Source: Pseudomonadota bacterium (lineage in GTDB: Bacteria > Desulfobacterota > Binatia > UBA12015). From it: a stretch of 33,780 nt of DNA. Where the stretch lies: assembly GCA_005777805.1 (NCBI GenBank), contig SXLG01000116.1, positions 1 through 33,780 on the forward strand, in the 5' to 3' direction. Position numbers and translations under genes: made by a program. The first letter of the stretch is position 1; the number at the start of each line of letters is the position of its first letter. Positions 2,841-15,350 of the stretch are shown in pieces. A model generated the notes under the pieces. It had not been told where the DNA came from. It searched no databases and saw nothing but the letters and a program-made list of their open reading frames with translations.

Positions 2841-3938
2841 GTGGGAGATGTGCCTGAGCGCGTGCTGATCGCCGGTGGCGGCACGGGCGGGCATCTCTTT
2901 CCCGGAATCGCGCTTGCCGACGAGCTGCGGCGGCGCGGCGTGCGCGAAGTCATGTTTGTTGGGAGCCGGCGCGGCATCGAACGGGAGGCGGTGCCGCGCG
3001 CCGGGTATCCGGTCGAGCTGCTCGACGTGGGCGGCGTGCGTGGCCAGGGCGCGCTCGGTGCTGCCGCGGCACTGGCGCGGGTCGTGCCCGCGCTCGGACG
3101 CAGCGTGCGGATCCGCCGCGCGTTCCGTCCCGAGCTGGCTGTCGGTGTGGGGGGCTACGCCGCTTTTCCGGCGATTGTCGCGGCCCGGCTCGGCCGGGTG
3201 CCGGTGGTGCTGATGGAGCAGAACGCCGCGCCGGGCTGGGTGACGCGCGGGCTCGCACCGCTGGCGCAGCGGGTGTGCGTGAGCTTCCCCGGCACGGTCA
3301 CGACGCTCGGCACGCGCGCGGTCCTCACCGGGAATCCGGTGCGCTGGTCGCTTGTCCCGTCCGCCGTCGAGCGCCGCGCCGCGGTCGCGCTGCGGCTGCT
3401 GGTTTTTGGCGGCAGCGCGGGGGCCCGCCGGCTCAACGACATCGTTCCGGGTGCGGTCGCGCGGGCGCGTTTGTCGATCGAGGTCCTGCATCAGGGCGGT
3501 GCTGCGGACTGCGAGAGAGTGAGCCGGCACTACCGCGACGCCGGGGTCGAGGCGCGGGTCACGCCCTTCATCGACGATATGGCAGAGGCCTACGCCTGGG
3601 CCGATCTGGTGGTCTGCCGGGCCGGGGCGACGACGCTCGCCGAACTCACGGCCCTCGGTGTTGCCGCTCTTCTGGTGCCCTATCCCCATGCGGCCGGGGA
3701 CCACCAGCGCATCAATGCCGAGGCGCTGGTGGCGGCGGGTGCCGCCCGGATGATCCTCGATCCCGAACTCGACGAGAGCGGTCTCGCGCGGCAACTCGTC
3801 GAGCTGGTCACGCAGCCGGCGCAGCTCGCTGCGATGCGCGTCCAGGCCCGTGCCCTGGGCCGGCCCGACGCCGCCGCGCGGGTGGCAGATGAATGCCTCG
3901 CGGTCGTCGCCGCCCGCCGCGGACACGGACGCCGGTAG
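2841..3938 (+). CDS. murG: MurG, lipid II synthase (GlcNAc transferase)
   Basis: MurG is the peripheral membrane glycosyltransferase (GT28) that transfers GlcNAc from UDP-GlcNAc to lipid I, making lipid II. It has 365 residues. The N-terminal nucleotide loop GGGTGGHLFPG sits at about residues 12-22, VGVGGYAAFPA follows, and MEQNAAPGWVTR matches the conserved EQN segment. The donor-site C-terminal domain shows CRAGATTLAEL and PYPHAAGDHQRINAEAL. The GTG start follows the ftsW stop immediately. The last roughly 15 codons fall inside a degenerate tandem repeat that continues past the stop (see 3895-4140), so the Arg-rich tail AARRGHGRR may have been shaped by that repeat and not by selection on MurG. 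Confidence 0.96.
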   Translation: MGDVPERVLIAGGGTGGHLFPGIALADELRRRGVREVMFVGSRRGIEREAVPRAGYPVELLDVGGVRGQGALGAAAALARVVPALGRSVRIRRAFRPELAVGVGGYAAFPAIVAARLGRVPVVLMEQNAAPGWVTRGLAPLAQRVCVSFPGTVTTLGTRAVLTGNPVRWSLVPSAVERRAAVALRLLVFGGSAGARRLNDIVPGAVARARLSIEVLHQGGAADCERVSRHYRDAGVEARVTPFIDDMAEAYAWADLVVCRAGATTLAELTALGVAALLVPYPHAAGDHQRINAEALVAAGAARMILDPELDESGLARQLVELVTQPAQLAAMRVQARALGRPDAAARVADECLAVVAARRGHGRR

Positions 3939-7834: not shown

Positions 7835-9064
7835 GTGGCCTCCCGCGCGGAGATCACCGTCGCCCTCGACGTGGGCACCCACCGCACGGCGGTGCTGGTG
7901 GCCCAACGGGTGGCGGGAACTCCGCGCATCACCGGCGTGGGCACCGCGCCGTCGCGCGGCCTGCGCCGCGGCGCGGTCGTCAATATCGAAGCGACGGTGC
8001 ATTCGATCGAGAGTGCGGTGCGCGAGGCCGAGCGCATGGCCGATTGCAACATCCGCGCGGTGCTGGTCGCGCTCGGCGGGAGCCACATCCGCAGCCTCGA
8101 CACGTCGGGCATGACCCCGATTCACCGCCACGAGGTGGATCTCGAGGACATCGATCGGGTGCATGCTGTGGCCCGTGCGGTGGCCGTGCCGGAGGACCGC
8201 GAGGTCGTGCACGTCCTGCCCCAGGACTACGTCGTCGATGGTCAAGCAGGGATCCGCGATCCCTACGGCATGACCGGCGTCCGGCTCGAAGTGCGTGCCC
8301 ACGTGCTGACCGCGGCCCGTGGTGCGGTGCAGAATCTGGTGCGTTGCTGCAACCGGGCGGGCCTCGAAGCCTCGCAGGTGGTGGTGGCGCCGATCGCTTC
8401 GGCGCATGCGGTCTTGACACCCGAGGAACGGGAAATCGGCGCGGTGATGGTCGACATCGGTGGCGGCACGACCGAGATCGTCGCGGTGCGTGGCGGAGCG
8501 GTGCGCCGCGTCTCGGTGGTCGGCCTTGGCGGCGGCCACGTCACCGGCGACATCGCCACCGGTCTGCGCACGACCGGGACCGAGGCCGAGCGGATCAAGC
8601 TGCGCCACGGGCACGCGCTTGCGGCGGCGGTTCGCGCCGGCGAGCACATCGAGGTCAACGGCATTGGCGGGCACGAGCCGCGCATGCTCTCGCGCCAGGT
8701 GCTGGCCGAGATCATCGAGCCACGTGCCGAGGAGATCCTGTCGCTCGTCCGCGAGCGGCTCGAAGAGAGCGATCTGATCGGCGCCCTGCCTGCGGGGGTG
8801 GTGTTGACCGGGGGCAGCGCGTCGCTGCCCGGGCTGGTTGAGCTTGGTGAAAAGGTATTCCGGCTCCCGGTACGGCTCGGAGAGCCGCATCGGATTGCCG
8901 GCGTTGGCGACGTCGTATCTGGCCCGATGTGGGCCACGGCGATCGGTTTACTGGAGTTGGCGGGTGAGGAATCGGATGACTTCGAGCTGCCGGATGGATT
9001 GCCGGCGGGCGTGGTCACGCGATTCCGCAACCGCATGGGGGATTGGCTGAGGGAGTTCTTCTGA
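7835..9064 (+). CDS. ftsA: FtsA, actin-like Z-ring membrane anchor
   Basis: FtsA is an actin-fold ATPase that tethers FtsZ to the membrane and recruits later divisome proteins. The 409-residue protein starts with the phosphate-1 segment [14 protein letters not shown]. The SHS2/1C domain follows ([16 protein letters not shown]). Phosphate-2 is [18 protein letters not shown], and the adenosine motif is [13 protein letters not shown]. The extreme C-terminus [13 protein letters not shown] is the expected amphipathic membrane-targeting helix. The GTG start is adjacent to the ftsQ stop. The protein is complete and typical. Confidence 0.96.
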
Positions 9065-9098
9065 GCACCGACTCGGGGAGAGAGTGCACGGAAGATGT

Positions 9099-9104
9099 GG
9101 AGGT
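9099..9104 (+). promoter_or_regulatory. Ribosome-binding site that fixes the ftsZ start
   Basis: GGAGGT ends four bases before the ATG at 9109. The ftsZ frame stays open upstream into the ftsA 3' end (a TTG at 9043 is possible), but only the ATG at 9109 has a strong Shine-Dalgarno sequence, and it gives the normal short variable N-terminus of FtsZ. Confidence 0.7.
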
Positions 9105-9108
9105 GGCG

Positions 9109-10428
9109 ATGAGCGGGGCGTTCGGCGGCACGATGGAAGGCGCGAGGATCAAGGTCGTGGGTGTGGGGGGCGGTGGTGGAAACGCCGTCAATACCATGAT
9201 ACAGGCGGGTATGGGCGGCGTGGATTTTCTCGCGGCCAATACCGACGGGCAGGCGCTTGGGCGCAGCCTGGCCACGGTCAAGGTCCAGCTGGGGAACGAG
9301 ATCACCAAGGGACTCGGGGCCGGGGCGCGGCCGGCGACCGGGCGCGAAGCAGCGCTCGAGGACGCCGACATGCTGCGCGACCTTCTCTCGGGCGCCGACA
9401 TGGTCTTCGTCACGGCGGGCATGGGCGGTGGCACCGGAACCGGCGCTGCGCCGGTCATCGCCGGCATCGCGCGCGAGGTCGGCGCGTTGACGGTCGGTGT
9501 GGTGACCAAGCCCTTCCTCTTCGAGGGCCGCCGTCGCATGGCCCAGGCCGAGGAGGGGATCCTCGCGCTGAAGCCCAACGTCGATGCGTTGATCACCATC
9601 CCCAACCAGCGTCTGCTCTCGGTGGCGAGCCGCAACATGCCGAGTCTGGAGGCTTTCCGCCGCGCCGACGACGTGCTCCTGCAGGCGGTGCGCGGCATCT
9701 CGGACCTGATCAGTGTCGATGGCCTGATCAATCTCGATTTTGCCGACGTGCGCACGATCATGAGCGAGATGGGCATGGCGATGATGGGTGCGGCCATGGC
9801 CGAGGGCGAGAACCGCGCCATCGAGGCGGCGCAGCGCGCGATCTCGTCGCCGCTGCTCGACGACGTCTCGATCCAGGGCGCGCGCGGCGTGCTGATCAAC
9901 ATCACCGGCGGTAGCGACCTCTCCTTGAGCGAGGTCAATGACGCGGCGACGCTGATCCAGGAGGAGGCGCACGAGGAGGCAAACATCATCTTCGGTGCCG
10001 TGATCGACGAGACGATGGGCGACAAGATCCGCATCACCGTGATCGCCACGGGTTTCGGCGAGGAGGCCCGCGCCGCTCTGCCGACCGCGCAGGAACTGCT
10101 GCGCCCCCGCGCCGCGACGCCGCCTGCGGCTACGGCACCGGCACCCGTGGCACCGCGTCCCGACCTCCGCCGCGGTCCCGCCCCGTCCCCGCTCTCGTCG
10201 GCCCCGTCCGCCAAGGCCCCCTCGGGCTGGGCGCGTGCCGCCGCCGCGGTCGGCCGCAAGGTGGTCCGCATGGGCACGATCGAGGACGAGAACGGCGTCC
10301 CGAAGTTCCACAACACGGCGCATGACACCGTCGAGCGCGACTCCAGCAACGAGCCCGCGCTGCGGCCCCTCGAAGACGACGAGGCCGACTACGACATCCC
10401 GACCTTCCTGCGCAAGCAGGCCGACTGA
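9109..10428 (+). CDS. ftsZ: FtsZ, tubulin-like division GTPase
   Basis: FtsZ polymerises with GTP into the Z ring at midcell. From the chosen ATG the protein has 439 residues. The N-terminal nucleotide loop is [14 protein letters not shown], the tubulin signature [13 protein letters not shown] sits at about residues 106-118, and the T7 synergy segment is [29 protein letters not shown] and [13 protein letters not shown] follow in the C-terminal domain. A disordered Ala/Pro linker of about 80 residues leads to the conserved tail peptide [13 protein letters not shown], the binding site for FtsA and other partners. It is the last gene of the cluster and is followed by a hairpin terminator candidate. 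Confidence 0.98.
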
Positions 10429-10458
10429 ACCGAGCCCTGCTCGGTGAGGGGGTGGCGC

Positions 10459-10486
10459 GGCCCGCCGGGTGAGAGCCCGGCGGGCC
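10459..10486 (+). terminator. GC-rich hairpin after ftsZ
   Basis: A perfect 11-bp stem, GGCCCGCCGGG (10459-10469) and CCCGGCGGGCC (10476-10486), encloses the loop TGAGAG, 30 bases after the ftsZ stop. The downstream sequence GTCCTCGTTC has only scattered T residues, so it is not a textbook intrinsic terminator. Its strength and location suggest that it ends the dcw transcript or stabilises its 3' end. Confidence 0.7.
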
Positions 10487-10496
10487 GTCCTCGTTC

Positions 10497-10879
10497 AAGG
10501 CAATAATAGGCACGGGGTCGAAGGGTAGGGGCTGGCCCCCAAGCTCGGCGCGGTTTCGCGCGCTGCTCTCCGTTCGCCGGAGGCGGGTTGCAGCCGCCGT
10601 CTCTCTGGCCAAGCTCGCGCTCGGGAGTCTCCCGACACCCGCGCATTCCCTCGGTCGGGCGCTCCTCAGTTCCCCGCGCATCCGACGGCAAGGTGTTGCG
10701 GGCATGACCGCCTCCGACCGCCGTCCCGATCCTCGCGTCGGGCGGTCCCGGGGTCGCCCGGCGCATCGAGCGACTTGCTCTGCGACGCCAAGCGCGAGAT
10801 AGGTTTTCAGCCTGGGGGCACCGCTTCCAGCCGGGATATCGCCGGTAAATCGCCGACCGGAGCCGAGGGAACACCGACG
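10497..10879. other. Non-coding stretch between ftsZ and the Sel1 pseudogene
   Basis: No frame here has recognisable protein sequence. A 13-base palindrome, CGGGAGTCTCCCG, lies at 10622-10634. A purine-rich GAGGGA near 10865-10870 precedes the ATG at 10880. I see no promoter that I would defend. Confidence 0.4.
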
Positions 10880-11335
10880 ATGAATGCTGTCAAGCTCCAG
10901 GTATGGGGATGTCTGTCGCTGAAGATCCTCGTGGGGGCGCAAGCCATGGCTGGGATGAGCCTGCTGGCCGCGTGCTCACCGATGCCAAACGCTCAAGAGG
11001 ATCCAGAGCAGGTGGCACCAGCCCCCGAGGTCGCGTGGTACCGCAAGGCCGCCGAGCCGGGCGATGCGTCAGCCCAGTATAACCTCTGATTGATGTATGA
11101 CCAAGGTCAAGGCGTGCCGCAACTGCCCGTCGTGGCCTATGCCCTCTCTAACCTCGCGGCGGCAGACGGCGGCATGTGGGACGGGAATTTGGCCAAGGCC
11201 CGCGACCTCGTCGCGAAGACGCTGTCTCCGCGCGCGTTGGAGGCCGGGCAGGAGCTCAGGCGCGAGTCGAGTACGCCCGGGCGGTTCCTCAAGACGCTGG
11301 ATCGCTACGTCGCGCAGCAGGCCGGTCGCTACTGA
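10880..11335 (+). pseudogene. Sel1-repeat lipoprotein gene with an in-frame TGA
   Basis: The ATG at 10880 starts a lipoprotein-type signal peptide (hydrophobic stretch ending SLLAAC, lipobox Cys32). After a short acidic linker comes a Sel1-like repeat, AWYRKAAEPGDASAQYNL. Codon 70 (11087-11089) is TGA, and the same frame then continues LMYDQGQGVPQ, the exact remainder of the Sel1 motif AQYNLGLMYxxGxGVPQ. The stop thus replaces the conserved glycine, which one G-to-T change in GGA would explain. The frame runs on as AYALSNLAAADGG and AKARDLVAKTLSPRALEAGQEL, a normal Sel1-family ending, to TGA at 11335. Many other genes here end in TGA, so the codon is not reassigned. The remaining risk is a sequencing error. 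Confidence 0.75.
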
Positions 11336-11393
11336 CCGACTGGGCAGGCGACACGGAGGACAGGGGGCCGACGGAGAGCCGGCTTGCCGGGAG

Positions 11394-11699
11394 TCACCGC
11401 CCGCGGCGGGTGTGCGCTCGAATCCATGTTGCCCATTCGCCCTCTGACGCGGTGCCGTCTGCCGGTGCGAGCATCGCCACCACCGCGTCGGCATCTGACG
11501 CCTCGAACTCGACGCCGTTGATGCCGAGGAACGTCACCATGGCGAGGAACCGGACCCGCCGCGGTCTGGCGAGGCCCGATTCGAGGGCGTATTCGTCGCG
11601 CACGCTTGGCAGGCCGCCGTGTTCGGGAAGTTGGTCGCTGTGGATTGCATCCACGACGAGCCCTCCGAGCCACCTGGGTTCGGATCGCCGGTTGGGAAC
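11394..11699 (-). pseudogene. Doc/Fic-type toxin remnant with its catalytic core deleted
   Basis: Read on the - strand, the frame gives EPRWLGGLVVDAIHSDQL, then EHGGLPSVRDEYALESGLARPR, typical of the N-terminal half of Doc (death-on-curing) toxins. It then jumps directly to FLAMVTFLGINGVEFEA, the helix that normally follows the catalytic HPFxDGNKR motif. Roughly 35 residues holding the whole Fic motif are missing without a frameshift, so the product cannot be an active Fic kinase. There is no good start: the natural position, three bases past the antitoxin stop, reads GTT where GTG would serve. An internal GTG at 11654 would give 86 residues. The gene follows an equally damaged antitoxin in the same orientation. 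Confidence 0.75.
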
Positions 11700-11702
11700 G
11701 GG

Positions 11703-11930
11703 CTACTTCGCCAGCGCGCGGAGTGCGTTGCGGTATTTGGTTGCAGCTCTCGCGGCGACCTTCAGGGCGCGTTCGGCCTCGGGGTCGTAGGGCGTGAGGA
11801 GGATGCCGCGGTCCGTCTCGATCGCGAGCACACGGTCGCCGGCCTCCAAGCGCAGGCGATCGGCCATGCCCTAGGGGAGCGTCGCACTCACGGAACCACC
11901 GACCTGGCGGAGAGTGACTTCCTTGGTCAT
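11703..11930 (-). pseudogene. AbrB/MazE-type antitoxin gene with an amber stop at codon 20
   Basis: Read on the - strand from ATG at 11930, the frame gives MTKEVTLRQVGGSVSATLP, then TAG at 11873-11871, then GMADRLRLEAGDRVLAIET and GILLTPYDPEAERAL, ending KYRNALRALAK and a stop at 11703. This is a complete SpoVT/AbrB swapped-hairpin DNA-binding domain except for the stop, which sits where the family has Lys (AAG to TAG, one base). Such antitoxins pair with Doc toxins, and a Doc remnant follows directly in the same frame. An internal ATG at 11867 could restart a 54-residue fragment without the first strand. A sequencing error is possible but would not explain the toxin deletion. Confidence 0.75.
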
Positions 11931-12209
11931 GGACCGAATCTCACACAGCAGTGCCACCCGAACTCAGCGATGGCGGGCCGCGCCGACGTGCGGCACAGGG
12001 TTCGCGCGGCGCGGCCCTCGTGGACCGGCGGCGATCTGCGGCGTCATCCCCGAGATCCTGCTGGCCTGCCGCCGGGCTGGAAGACCCACGGTCCGGTTGC
12101 GGGATCGCCTCGAGTCGAATGCGGGTGGCGGAGACCGATTCGGGGCTCGTGGTTCCCCCGTCTCGGCTGGAGCGGGGCGGCGGCTCGACCGCGGTGCTAG
12201 CCGGGGGGC
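11931..12209. other. Region between the antitoxin remnant and the radical SAM gene
   Basis: The 279 bases lie between divergent genes, so they should hold the promoter of the radical SAM gene and formerly that of the toxin-antitoxin pair. All six frames were examined; open frames exist, but none shows conserved protein sequence. No clear -35/-10 pair was seen. Confidence 0.3.
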
Positions 12210-13925
12210 GTGCAGGGCCATCGCGAACAGCGGGCGCGGGACCGGGCGCGCCGGGCGGCCGAGCTACGGCTCGGTTGCGCCCCGCCGGCGACCTCCGACC
12301 TGTCTGTCTGCCTCGCCTACCCGAACGTCTACCCGGTGGCGATGGCGAACCTCGGATTCCAGGCGGTGGCCGATCTGCTCGCGCGCCAGCAGGTCGCGGT
12401 GGACCGCGCTTTCCTTCCCGACGCTGGCCCGCAGATGCGCCCGGCGTCCTTCGAGCGCGAACTCCCGCTCGACGCTTTCCCGATCCTCGCTTTCTCGATC
12501 TCGTTCGAGGCCGACTATGTGCACGTGCTCGATATGCTGGCCGCGGCGGGCCTGCCGCTACGGGCGGCCGAGCGCGATCGGCGCCATCCGCTGATCGTGG
12601 CCGGCGGTCCCGCCATTTTCTTGAATCCCGAGCCGCTCGCGCCCTTCGTCGATCTCTTCTTGATCGGCGAGGCCGAGGAGATGCTTCCCGAATGGCTCGC
12701 AGTGCTGCGTGCGGTGGGCGGCGCCGAGGCTGGCCGCGAGGCGCTGCTCGAAGCGAGTGCCGGCATCGAGGGGGCGTACATCCCCGCGTGGCACCGGCCC
12801 GAGGGCGACGCTGACGGTGCGAATGGGTTTCGCGTCAAGCGCCGCTGGGTCGGGCGGCTCGACGACGCCCCGACCCAGACCCGGATTCTGGCGGCCGAAG
12901 CGGTCTTCGGCGATATGATGCTGGTCGAGGCGAGCCGTGGCTGCGAGTGGGGCTGCCGCTTCTGCGCGGCGGGCTTCATGTACCGGCCGGTGCGCCATCG
13001 CAGTGCCGACTCGCTGCGCCGCACCGTGCTCGAGGACGCCTTGCCCCAGCGCCCGACCGTCGGCCTGGTCGGCGCCGAGATGGCGAGCCAGCCCGGCATC
13101 GCGGCACTCTGCCGCGAGATTTCCGAGCGCGGCGGGCGGGCCTCGCCGTCCTCGCTCAAGGCCGATCTGGTGAGCCCCGAGCTGGCGCGCGCTCTCGGTG
13201 CCGGCAAGACACGCTCGGTGACGGTCGCGCCAGAGGCCGGCTCGGAACGGCTGCGTCGCGTACTCAATAAAAACCTGACCGAGGAGGAGATCCTGCGGGC
13301 TGCCGAGCTGATCGCTGGCGGTGGTGTCAAGGCACTAAAGCTCTACTCGATGATCGGGCTGCCGACCGAGACCGACGACGACGTCGCGGCGATCGCCCGT
13401 CTCGCCGGCCGCATCCGCGAGCGCCTGCCGGGCGGGGTGGGGCGCATCAAGCTCTCGATCAATCCCTTCGTGCCCAAGCCCCAGACGCCTTTTCAGTGGG
13501 AACCGATGGCGCCGCTCGCCTTGCTGCGCGAACGGGTCCGCCTGCTGCGGCGGCAAGTCGCCGCCATCCCCGGCGCGCAGGTCGATATCGAATCGCCGCG
13601 AGATGCCTACTGGCAGACGCTGCTCTCGCGTGGTGACCGCCGCGTGGGCGACATCATCGAGGAGGTCCACCGGGCCGGCGGGCGTCCTTGGGCGGTGCTG
13701 CGCGCCCGCGAGGCGGCGAGCCGGCACGGTCGGGACGCGGACGCGGGTCCGCCGCCCTCGTGGTGGGTCGAGCGACGGATTCCGCTCGACGAGACGCTGC
13801 CCTGGGAGTTCATCGACCACGGCTTCGACAAGCGCTACCTCCAGGCCGAGTGGCGCAAGGCAAAACTCGAGCGCGAGACGGCGCCCTGCGACGTCGCGAC
13901 CTGCCATGCCTGCGGCGCCTGCTGA
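12210..13925 (+). CDS. Radical SAM protein of the B12-binding-domain type, function unknown
   Basis: The 571-residue protein has an N-terminal region resembling a B12-binding-like fold (LAYPNVYPVAMANLGFQAV, then ILAFSISFEADYVHVLDML, VAGGPAIFLNPEPLAPF and LFLIGEAEEM). The radical SAM core follows. Its cluster motif CEWGCRFC (C245, C249, C252) is the canonical CX3CX2C that binds the 4Fe-4S cluster used to cleave SAM. VTVAPEAGSERLRRVLNK and KLYSMIGLPTETDDD are typical barrel segments. The last residues, CDVATCHACGAC, form an extra cysteine cluster that may bind metal or a second cluster. It resembles a widespread uncharacterised family (TIGR03960-like). The GTG at 12210 is the first start in frame; a shorter N-terminus is possible. 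The substrate is unknown. Confidence 0.85.
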   Translation: MQGHREQRARDRARRAAELRLGCAPPATSDLSVCLAYPNVYPVAMANLGFQAVADLLARQQVAVDRAFLPDAGPQMRPASFERELPLDAFPILAFSISFEADYVHVLDMLAAAGLPLRAAERDRRHPLIVAGGPAIFLNPEPLAPFVDLFLIGEAEEMLPEWLAVLRAVGGAEAGREALLEASAGIEGAYIPAWHRPEGDADGANGFRVKRRWVGRLDDAPTQTRILAAEAVFGDMMLVEASRGCEWGCRFCAAGFMYRPVRHRSADSLRRTVLEDALPQRPTVGLVGAEMASQPGIAALCREISERGGRASPSSLKADLVSPELARALGAGKTRSVTVAPEAGSERLRRVLNKNLTEEEILRAAELIAGGGVKALKLYSMIGLPTETDDDVAAIARLAGRIRERLPGGVGRIKLSINPFVPKPQTPFQWEPMAPLALLRERVRLLRRQVAAIPGAQVDIESPRDAYWQTLLSRGDRRVGDIIEEVHRAGGRPWAVLRAREAASRHGRDADAGPPPSWWVERRIPLDETLPWEFIDHGFDKRYLQAEWRKAKLERETAPCDVATCHACGAC

Positions 13926-14719: not shown

Positions 14720-15103
14720 ATGGCCGAGACGCGCAAGTCGTTCGATCTCTTCCAGTGGCTCTACGGCGCCGGCGAAGAGCGACTCGGTGCCTTCGCCGAG
14801 CAGATCCTGATGAACCCGCGCCTCATGGCCGCGCTGGCCGCGGCATTGCAGCGAGCCGCCGAGACCAAGGGGCGGATGGATCGCAACATGCAGATGATTC
14901 TGGGAGCGCTCAATCTGCCCTCGAAGAGCGATCTGACGCGACTTCAGGCCAAGCTCGACGCCGTTCAGGGGAGCCTCGTCAATCTGAGCATGAAGGTCGA
15001 TCGCCTGCTGGCTGAGCGCGACTCTCCGCCGCCGGCCCCACGCCGCAGCACGCCTCGCCGGGCGGCGTCTCCCGAGCACCCGACCTCCGACGACGAGCCG
15101 TAG
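14720..15103 (+). CDS. Phasin/PhaE-like coiled-coil protein
   Basis: The 127-residue protein is largely helical. FDLFQWLYGAGEERLGAF and LMAALAAALQRAAETKGRM form an amphipathic N-terminal part. LNLPSKSDLTRLQAKLDAV and SLVNLSMKVDRLLAE form a heptad coiled coil, and a Pro/Arg-rich disordered tail of about 30 residues ends SDDEP. The LxxPSxxDLxxLxxxLD pattern occurs in polyhydroxyalkanoate granule proteins and PHA synthase subunits such as PhaE, which is the basis of the name. No PHA synthase is in the window, so the role is tentative. The ATG at 14720 is preceded by GGGGAAAA; an ATG at 14716 is out of frame. Confidence 0.6.
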   Translation: MAETRKSFDLFQWLYGAGEERLGAFAEQILMNPRLMAALAAALQRAAETKGRMDRNMQMILGALNLPSKSDLTRLQAKLDAVQGSLVNLSMKVDRLLAERDSPPPAPRRSTPRRAASPEHPTSDDEP

Positions 15104-15110
15104 CGGGGCC

Positions 15111-15350
15111 CGGGCCGCCGGCCGTGGCGGTCTCGGTTCGTGTGGGCGACCGCTACGAGGCGAGCAGCCGTGGCGCGGCTCGGGCCACCGACCGCGAGGT
15201 GGTCTAGTCGTCGCCGATGGAACGTCCCGGCCCGAGAAATTCGTGACGTGGTTCGGGCGGTCGTTCGCGAGGCGCTCTCGGCTCGCGGCGGCGACCGCTA
15301 CGAGGCGAGCAGCCGTAGCGCGGCTCGGACCACCGGCCGTGGCGGTCTTC
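15111..15350 (+). repeat. Tandem repeat of about 75 bp between two genes
   Basis: Two long copies (15131-15205 and 15276-15350) share a 49-base core starting GCGACCGCTACGAGGCGAGC at 15146 and 15291, with only three mismatches. The tail of the unit, CCGGCCGTGGCGGTCT, also occurs just before the first copy (about 15117). The 70 bases between the two copies look like a strongly diverged copy. The layout is therefore a tandem array with a period near 70-75 bp. The open frame across it (15140-15400) is not convincing as a gene. Apart from the repeat I see nothing in 15104-15396 except the ribosome site of the next gene. Confidence 0.7.

What the first reader, a model, noticed from the sequence alone, without database searches (positions are those of the whole stretch)
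11394..11930. Decayed AbrB-Doc toxin-antitoxin module with independent lesions in both genes
The antitoxin has an amber stop at codon 20 (Lys AAG to TAG). The toxin has lost about 35 residues containing the whole Fic motif in one in-frame deletion, and its start appears changed to GTT. An inactive toxin removes the need for the antitoxin, so the deletion probably came first and the antitoxin then decayed. The internal start at 11867 could leave a partial DNA-binding fragment.
Basis: partly seen in the sequence, partly recalled or inferred. Interest (0 to 1): 0.5.

Follow-up and report, generated by a model that had tools for sequence, protein, structure and literature searches.

The report
Dead toxin-antitoxin gene pair
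A bacterial toxin-and-antidote gene pair that landed next to a cell-division gene has lost the toxin's active site and the antidote's reading frame, which looks like an ordinary example of a selfish gene pair decaying.

Summary
On the minus strand, 11930-11394 has an AbrB-type antitoxin frame followed directly by a Doc-type toxin frame; both are broken. The antitoxin has TAG at codon 20, where the three closest intact relatives have Lys. The toxin lacks 33 codons (99 nt, in frame; not ~35), which in the relatives hold the Fic/Doc motif except its last one or two residues. The toxin start is GTT where two of the three relatives have GTG (the third has GTG one codon earlier). I add: the pair lies in a ~1.7-kb insertion between ftsZ and a radical-SAM gene that the one same-genus genome lacks; a Sel1-repeat gene in the insertion also carries a stop; the probable operator is eroded (weaker evidence); retained toxin codons changed at 16 of 56 positions where the relatives agree; another genome has an independently broken toxin of the same clade. 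No conserved motif-less form was found. Thirteen flanking stretches comparable with the same-genus genome have no stops, so sequence error is unlikely, but reads were not available. The order of events cannot be shown; toxin loss first is the sensible inference. This is an ordinary decayed TasAB (AbrB-Doc) module; decay of such modules has published precedent.

The parts
11706..11930 (-). AbrB/MazE-type antitoxin frame (TIGR02609 'doc_partner' kind), 75 codons, interrupted by TAG at codon 20 (11873-11871)
   Evidence: codons 22-75 are 67-72% identical to three intact antitoxins
11871..11873 (-). in-frame amber stop where the three closest intact relatives have Lys
11706..11867 (-). remaining 54-codon antitoxin frame from the internal ATG; keeps the C-terminal part, lacks the first 21 codons
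   Evidence: expression not shown
11397..11702 (-). Doc-type toxin frame, 102 codons from stop to stop, with 33 codons missing
11556..11561 (-). junction of the 99-nt in-frame deletion that removed the Fic/Doc motif except its last one or two residues
11697..11699 (-). GTT at the codon where two of the three closest intact toxins (G018, G126) have GTG; the third (G043) has GTG one codon earlier
11941..11956 (-). possible eroded copy of a palindrome TAGCAC-N4-GTGCTA found exactly in two of the three intact relatives; 3 of 12 arm positions differ
   Evidence: such matches are expected about 5 times per window by chance, so position is the only support, and a wider 44-nt block test was negative
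10880..11335 (+). Sel1-repeat frame in the same insertion, broken by TGA at 11087-11089 inside the repeat
   Evidence: PF08238, 3.8e-05, 24.5 bits, under the cut-off of 30.7, stop read as X
10490..12174 (.). inserted stretch (ends approximate) between ftsZ (9043-10428 +) and a TIGR03960-type radical-SAM gene (12210-13925 +); absent from the same-genus genome G001

Best explanation
This is the remains of a chromosomal type II toxin-antitoxin module of the TasAB (AbrB antitoxin plus Doc toxin) kind. It lies in a ~1.7-kb insertion between ftsZ and a radical-SAM gene and has decayed. In intact relatives the upstream AbrB-type protein would bind a palindrome over its own promoter and neutralise Doc, which in phage P1 phosphorylates EF-Tu (inferred from family knowledge; PMC4177925, passage). 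Here the toxin has lost its catalytic loop and probably its start codon, and the antitoxin is cut at codon 20, so no working pair is made. Shown by comparison: the nonsense codon, the 33-codon deletion, the GTT codon, the insertion. Inferred: loss of activity, erosion of regulation, arrival with the insertion, and that toxin loss came first.
For: Two-piece match to intact Docs and a 33-codon gap over the motif. Lys at codon 20 in 3 of 3 closest pairs. GTG at the GTT codon in 2 of 3, one codon earlier in the third. The intact relative G018 scores 59.0 bits on TIGR01550 (cut-off 38.65) and 59.5 on PF02661 (cut-off 24), while the window frame matches neither. No PF02661 match at E <= 0.001 in the window's own, 70% complete, genome. 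Window Doc departs at 16 of 56 columns where the three others agree, against 2 of 42, 5 of 45 and 7 of 47 for the others in turn; AbrB 10 of 50 (the stop included) against 4 of 44, 4 of 44 and 5 of 45; pooled Fisher tests 0.0025 and 0.057. Gap ftsZ to radical SAM 1781 nt here, 110 nt in G001, 68-299 nt in 9 of the 11 family relatives that could be measured. A neighbouring gene in the insertion is also broken. Of 13 non-overlapping flanking stretches comparable with G001 (13,344 nt) none has a stop in its best frame.
Against: The genome is an incomplete assembly (70.03%, 194 contigs) and no reads could be inspected. Apart from the listed lesions both frames stay open with no frameshift, so decay is not far advanced. 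The Doc tree puts the window outside the other clade members (supports 0.893 and 0.906), so part of its excess of changes may be a longer branch rather than lost constraint; the AbrB tree nests it among them with weak support, 0.365. The AbrB excess alone is not significant (0.057). Synonymous sites are near saturation. The third relative's start codon is not at the same codon. The wider upstream comparison was negative.
Confidence: 0.92

Rival explanations
1. Assembly or sequencing artefact: the species has an intact pair and the consensus is wrong.
Against: Lesions of different kinds (two nonsense codons, a 99-nt deletion, a changed start) fall in one 1.7-kb insertion, while 13 flanking stretches comparable with G001 (13,344 of 33,780 nt) have no stop in their best frame. 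The retained toxin codons also show excess replacements, which an assembly error would not make.
Confidence: 0.05
2. Functional short variant: a motif-less Doc-like protein, or the 54-residue antitoxin fragment, is kept for a regulatory or anti-addiction role.
For: Both remaining frames are free of frameshifts; the deletion is in frame; the antitoxin fragment keeps the C-terminal part, which is described as particularly well conserved in TasA proteins (PMC1626090, section 4 part 1).
Against: No conserved short form among the matches in 148 class genomes, in the 58 junction-crossing rows listed of 160 plasmid records or in 2 of 2 matching phage records. Toxin start changed. The 50 nt upstream are 66% GC against 46-56% in the relatives and the palindrome is imperfect. 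The conserved C-terminal LRELAK reads LRALAK here.
Confidence: 0.03
3. Stop-codon reassignment: TAG or TGA is read as an amino acid in this organism.
For: TAG interrupts the antitoxin and TGA interrupts the Sel1-repeat frame.
Against: Two different stop codons would be needed. TAG ends the antitoxin at its expected length and TGA ends ftsZ and the toxin frame. It would explain neither the deletion nor the start. The 13 flanking stretches have no internal stops.
Confidence: 0.003

Closest known systems
TasAB (mazE-doc / AbrB-Doc) type II toxin-antitoxin family; TIGR02609 with TIGR01550/PF02661
   Same: Antitoxin gene directly before the toxin gene; the antitoxin fragment matches TIGR02609 at 2.6e-07; the three closest intact relatives carry H(x)5NKR(x)8F(x)3N as described for TasB (PMC1626090, section 4 part 1).
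   Different: Antitoxin interrupted, toxin motif missing, toxin start changed, probable operator eroded. This clade has GGS where TasA proteins are described as having GNS.
ccdO157 and other decaying chromosomal toxin-antitoxin systems of E. coli
   Same: [quoted passage not shown] the Genetics 2009 paper was seen only as a reference there).
   Different: Different toxin and antitoxin families; here only one assembly of the species is at hand.
Broken clade-A Doc in genome G092 (L006)
   Same: Same toxin clade in the tree, also looks dead: N-terminal part missing, no AbrB found, motif region reads PPHRDGNKR against HPYRDGNKR.
   Different: Different lesions and a different neighbourhood, so decay was independent.

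Membership tests
TasAB (AbrB-Doc) toxin-antitoxin module | AbrB/MazE-type antitoxin gene directly upstream of a Doc-type toxin gene | tested here: met
   Frames 11930-11706 and 11702-11397, same order as the 3 closest intact pairs
TasAB (AbrB-Doc) toxin-antitoxin module | Uninterrupted antitoxin reading frame | tested here: not met
   TAG at codon 20
TasAB (AbrB-Doc) toxin-antitoxin module | Toxin motif H(x)5NKR(x)8F(x)3N | tested here: not met
   R(x)8F(x)3N remains; H(x)5N is gone; no TIGR01550 or PF02661 match
TasAB (AbrB-Doc) toxin-antitoxin module | Toxin start codon at or next to the antitoxin stop | tested here: not met
   GTT where 2 of 3 closest relatives have GTG, CCC where the third has it; the first ATG, GTG or TTG in frame is codon 17 at 11654
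TasAB (AbrB-Doc) toxin-antitoxin module | Toxicity of Doc and neutralisation by the antitoxin | not testable with these tools
   needs expression experiments
Decayed chromosomal toxin-antitoxin locus | Lesions in both genes relative to intact homologues | tested here: met
Decayed chromosomal toxin-antitoxin locus | Relaxed constraint on what remains | tested here: inconclusive
   16 of 56 departures for Doc and 10 of 50 for AbrB, above the relatives, but a longer branch is not excluded
Decayed chromosomal toxin-antitoxin locus | Lesions present in reads or fixed across strains | not testable with these tools
   no reads and no second strain of the species at hand

The most novel reading that the evidence does not exclude
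The 54-residue antitoxin remnant from the internal start at 11867, which keeps the C-terminal part that is well conserved in this family, is still made at low level and works as an anti-addiction protein without DNA binding against incoming Doc toxins, so that the locus was not simply lost but reduced to an antidote.
Probability: 0.03. Interest if true: 0.45.

Novelty: new member of a known kind. Interest (0 to 1): 0.12.

Why it matters
Little on its own. It is a clear single case of how a selfish gene pair dies: it sits at a gap that seems to tolerate insertions, the toxin has lost its active site and probably its start, and the antidote's frame is cut. With the second independently broken toxin (G092), 2 of the 5 clade-A toxin loci found in 148 genomes of the class look dead, so loss in this family could be counted.

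Tried and rejected
Wrong frame first: searches (first two proteins; first two proteins), 10 and 11 used stretches out of frame (11395-11706 and 11708-11868). Their results for the pair mean nothing and were redone; the PDB search was not repeated for the broken frame, only for the intact relative (matches to P1 Doc structures such as 3k33 at 4.1e-10).

Genome contigs: the correctly framed scan found no confirmed relative (188 pattern matches, none passing tblastn), so no organism names could be attached; the class relatives are unnamed.

Transposon-like ends of the insertion: of 7 direct-repeat families none joins the two ends. Among the 25 of 34 inverted pairs listed, I6 (13 nt, exact; 10454-10466 with 11972-11984) and I10 (15 nt, 80%; 10592-10606 with 12171-12185) lie near one or both ends; in this GC-rich stretch I judged them chance and did not test it. 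Islet DNA gave no blastn match to the stretches at the same gap in G013 and G002 or upstream of the radical-SAM gene in G007.

A 44-nt upstream block shared by the three relatives was scored against the window: best score 9 of 17 informative positions, not at the expected place, and 59% of shuffles reach it. Only the short palindrome has a match at the expected place (3 mismatches, 10 nt from the ATG instead of 11); over the whole window 7 such matches occur with 5.05 expected.

Fisher tests pool overlapping comparisons and are illustrative only.

Sel1: neither half of the frame matches Pfam at E <= 10; only with the stop read as X does PF08238 appear, under its cut-off. A relative (L056) passes the cut-off, another stretch (L058) matches nothing.

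Structure prediction was not run: a broken frame folded alone says little, and the intact relatives come from a source that the tool does not accept.

Papers: PMC1626090 (outline with abstract, and section 4 part 1), PMC2701414 (passages; not used further), PMC2654758 (passages), PMC4177925 (passages). All others were seen in search listings only.

Full report
What is there. On the minus strand an antitoxin frame (11930-11706, stop TAG 11705-11703) is followed without a gap by a toxin frame (11702-11397, TGA 11396-11394). The antitoxin is of the AbrB/MazE kind. Its 54-codon remainder matches TIGR02609 (putative addiction module antidote) at 2.6e-07, 30.9 bits under a cut-off of 55.9; the intact antitoxin of G018 scores 55.7, also just under. 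With the stop read as X the whole frame passes the Pfam MazE_antitoxin cut-off, 30.3 against 24.7 bits. The toxin frame matches no Pfam family and no Doc model in NCBIfam, but aligns with intact Doc toxins by direct comparison.

The lesions. The class of the window's genome is represented by 148 genomes; 13 others match the toxin frame at E <= 0.001. The three closest pairs, in G018, G043 and G126, are complete. Against them the antitoxin has TAG where all three have Lys at codon 20, and the toxin lacks 33 codons between Arg-Pro and the last Arg of HPYRDGNKR. The window has CCC GTT after the antitoxin stop: G018 and G126 have GTG at the GTT codon, G043 has GTG one codon earlier. The first ATG, GTG or TTG in the window's toxin frame is codon 17 at 11654. 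For Doc the consensus motif is given as HxFx(D/N)(A/G)NKR (PMC4177925, passage), and TasB-type toxins share H(x)5NKR(x)8F(x)3N (PMC1626090, section 4 part 1). The relatives meet the second form; the window keeps only R(x)8F(x)3N. Loss of catalysis is inferred with high confidence, not measured.

Does a short form exist elsewhere? Of the 13 other class genomes, 11 have a Doc long enough to contain the motif and all 11 have it. Nine of these lie behind an AbrB-type antitoxin and two behind other small frames. The other two, G092 and G074, are fragments: G092 has the motif region in altered form, G074's fragment begins after it. In plasmids 160 records match. Of the 60 listed, 58 cross the junction and in each the matched stretch is 84-114 nt longer than the query's (my subtraction); 2 stop short and 100 were not listed. 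Both matching phage records show 102 nt more.

Regulation. Two of the three relatives have an exact palindrome TAGCAC-N4-GTGCTA ending 11 nt before the antitoxin start; in the 106 loci held it occurs only there, counting overlapping loci of the same two genomes as one place each. G126 has a weaker version at the same distance. I take it as a probable autoregulatory operator, which is inference. In the window the same place, 11941-11956, differs at 3 of the 12 arm positions, and the 50 nt upstream are 66% GC against 46-56% in the relatives. About five matches this good are expected per window by chance and a broader block comparison was negative, so erosion of the regulatory region is likely but not proven.

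Constraint. Where the three relatives agree, the window toxin departs at 16 of 56 positions. Each relative, scored the same way against the window and the other two, departs at 2 of 42, 5 of 45 and 7 of 47. For the antitoxin the figures are 10 of 50 (the stop included) against 4 of 44, 4 of 44 and 5 of 45 (illustrative tests 0.0025 and 0.057). One notable change is Arg at a position, just after the motif, that is Ala or Gly in the other Docs aligned. The window has the longest terminal branch within the clade in both trees (0.28 for the antitoxin, 0.48 for the toxin), but in the toxin tree it is the outside member, so relaxed constraint and plain distance are not fully separated.

Setting. In G001, the only same-genus genome found, ftsZ and the radical-SAM gene lie 110 nt apart against 1781 in the window, and the DNA match to G001 breaks off at 10489 and resumes at 12175. 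Of the 13 family relatives, 11 have both genes on the stretch examined: nine have gaps of 68-299 nt (G005 and G009 give identical coordinates), G013 has 803 and G002 has 7111. In G007 no ftsZ lies within 1.5 kb upstream of the radical-SAM gene, and in G011 no orthologue was found. The pair therefore sits in an insertion of about 1.7 kb, and the gap seems to tolerate insertions. A Sel1-repeat frame in the same insertion carries TGA at 11087-11089, inside the repeat. As a control I compared flanking frames with G001: one search gave 49 rows, 13 of them with stops; taking the best-scoring frame of each non-overlapping stretch leaves 13 stretches, 13,344 nt, none with a stop. The rest of the flanks had no usable match. 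This argues against general sequence error. The assembly is 70.03% complete in 194 contigs, and reads could not be inspected.

How it came about. Most likely a TasAB-type module arrived with the insertion, gave the host no lasting benefit, and decayed. An active Doc without its antitoxin should be harmful, so a toxin-killing change (deletion, start loss or promoter loss) probably preceded the antitoxin stop; which was first cannot be told from one sequence. In PMC1626090 cloning of tasB in E. coli yielded only toxin mutants, which shows how strongly toxin loss can be selected. Decay of chromosomal modules is documented (PMC2654758, passages). A second broken toxin of the same clade in G092 is an independent case.

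Verdict. It is an ordinary decayed toxin-antitoxin pair.

Noticed in passing
10880-11335 +: Sel1-repeat frame in the same insertion with an in-frame TGA at 11087-11089; its start looks like a lipoprotein signal (my reading by eye). Some relatives listed also hold stops.
   Followed up: partly
10490-12174: The ftsZ to radical-SAM gap holds an insertion in the window and is enlarged in two other family genomes (G013 803 nt, G002 7111 nt, no DNA match to this one), against 68-299 nt in nine; it may be a repeated insertion site.
   Followed up: partly
L006 (G092:C233): Independently broken clade-A Doc: similarity starts at about residue 42, motif region reads PPHRDGNKR, no AbrB found.
   Followed up: partly
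L054 (G074:C34:14000-20000), about 3017-3169: Isolated C-terminal Doc fragment of about 50 codons with no AbrB found nearby.
   Followed up: partly
L004 1246-1261, L005 1887-1902: Exact palindrome TAGCAC-N4-GTGCTA 11 nt before the antitoxin start in two intact pairs, a probable autoregulatory operator of this clade.
   Followed up: partly
15096-15348: Imperfect direct repeats (72 nt at 87.5% and 38 nt at 89.5%) seen in the self-comparison of the window.
   Followed up: no
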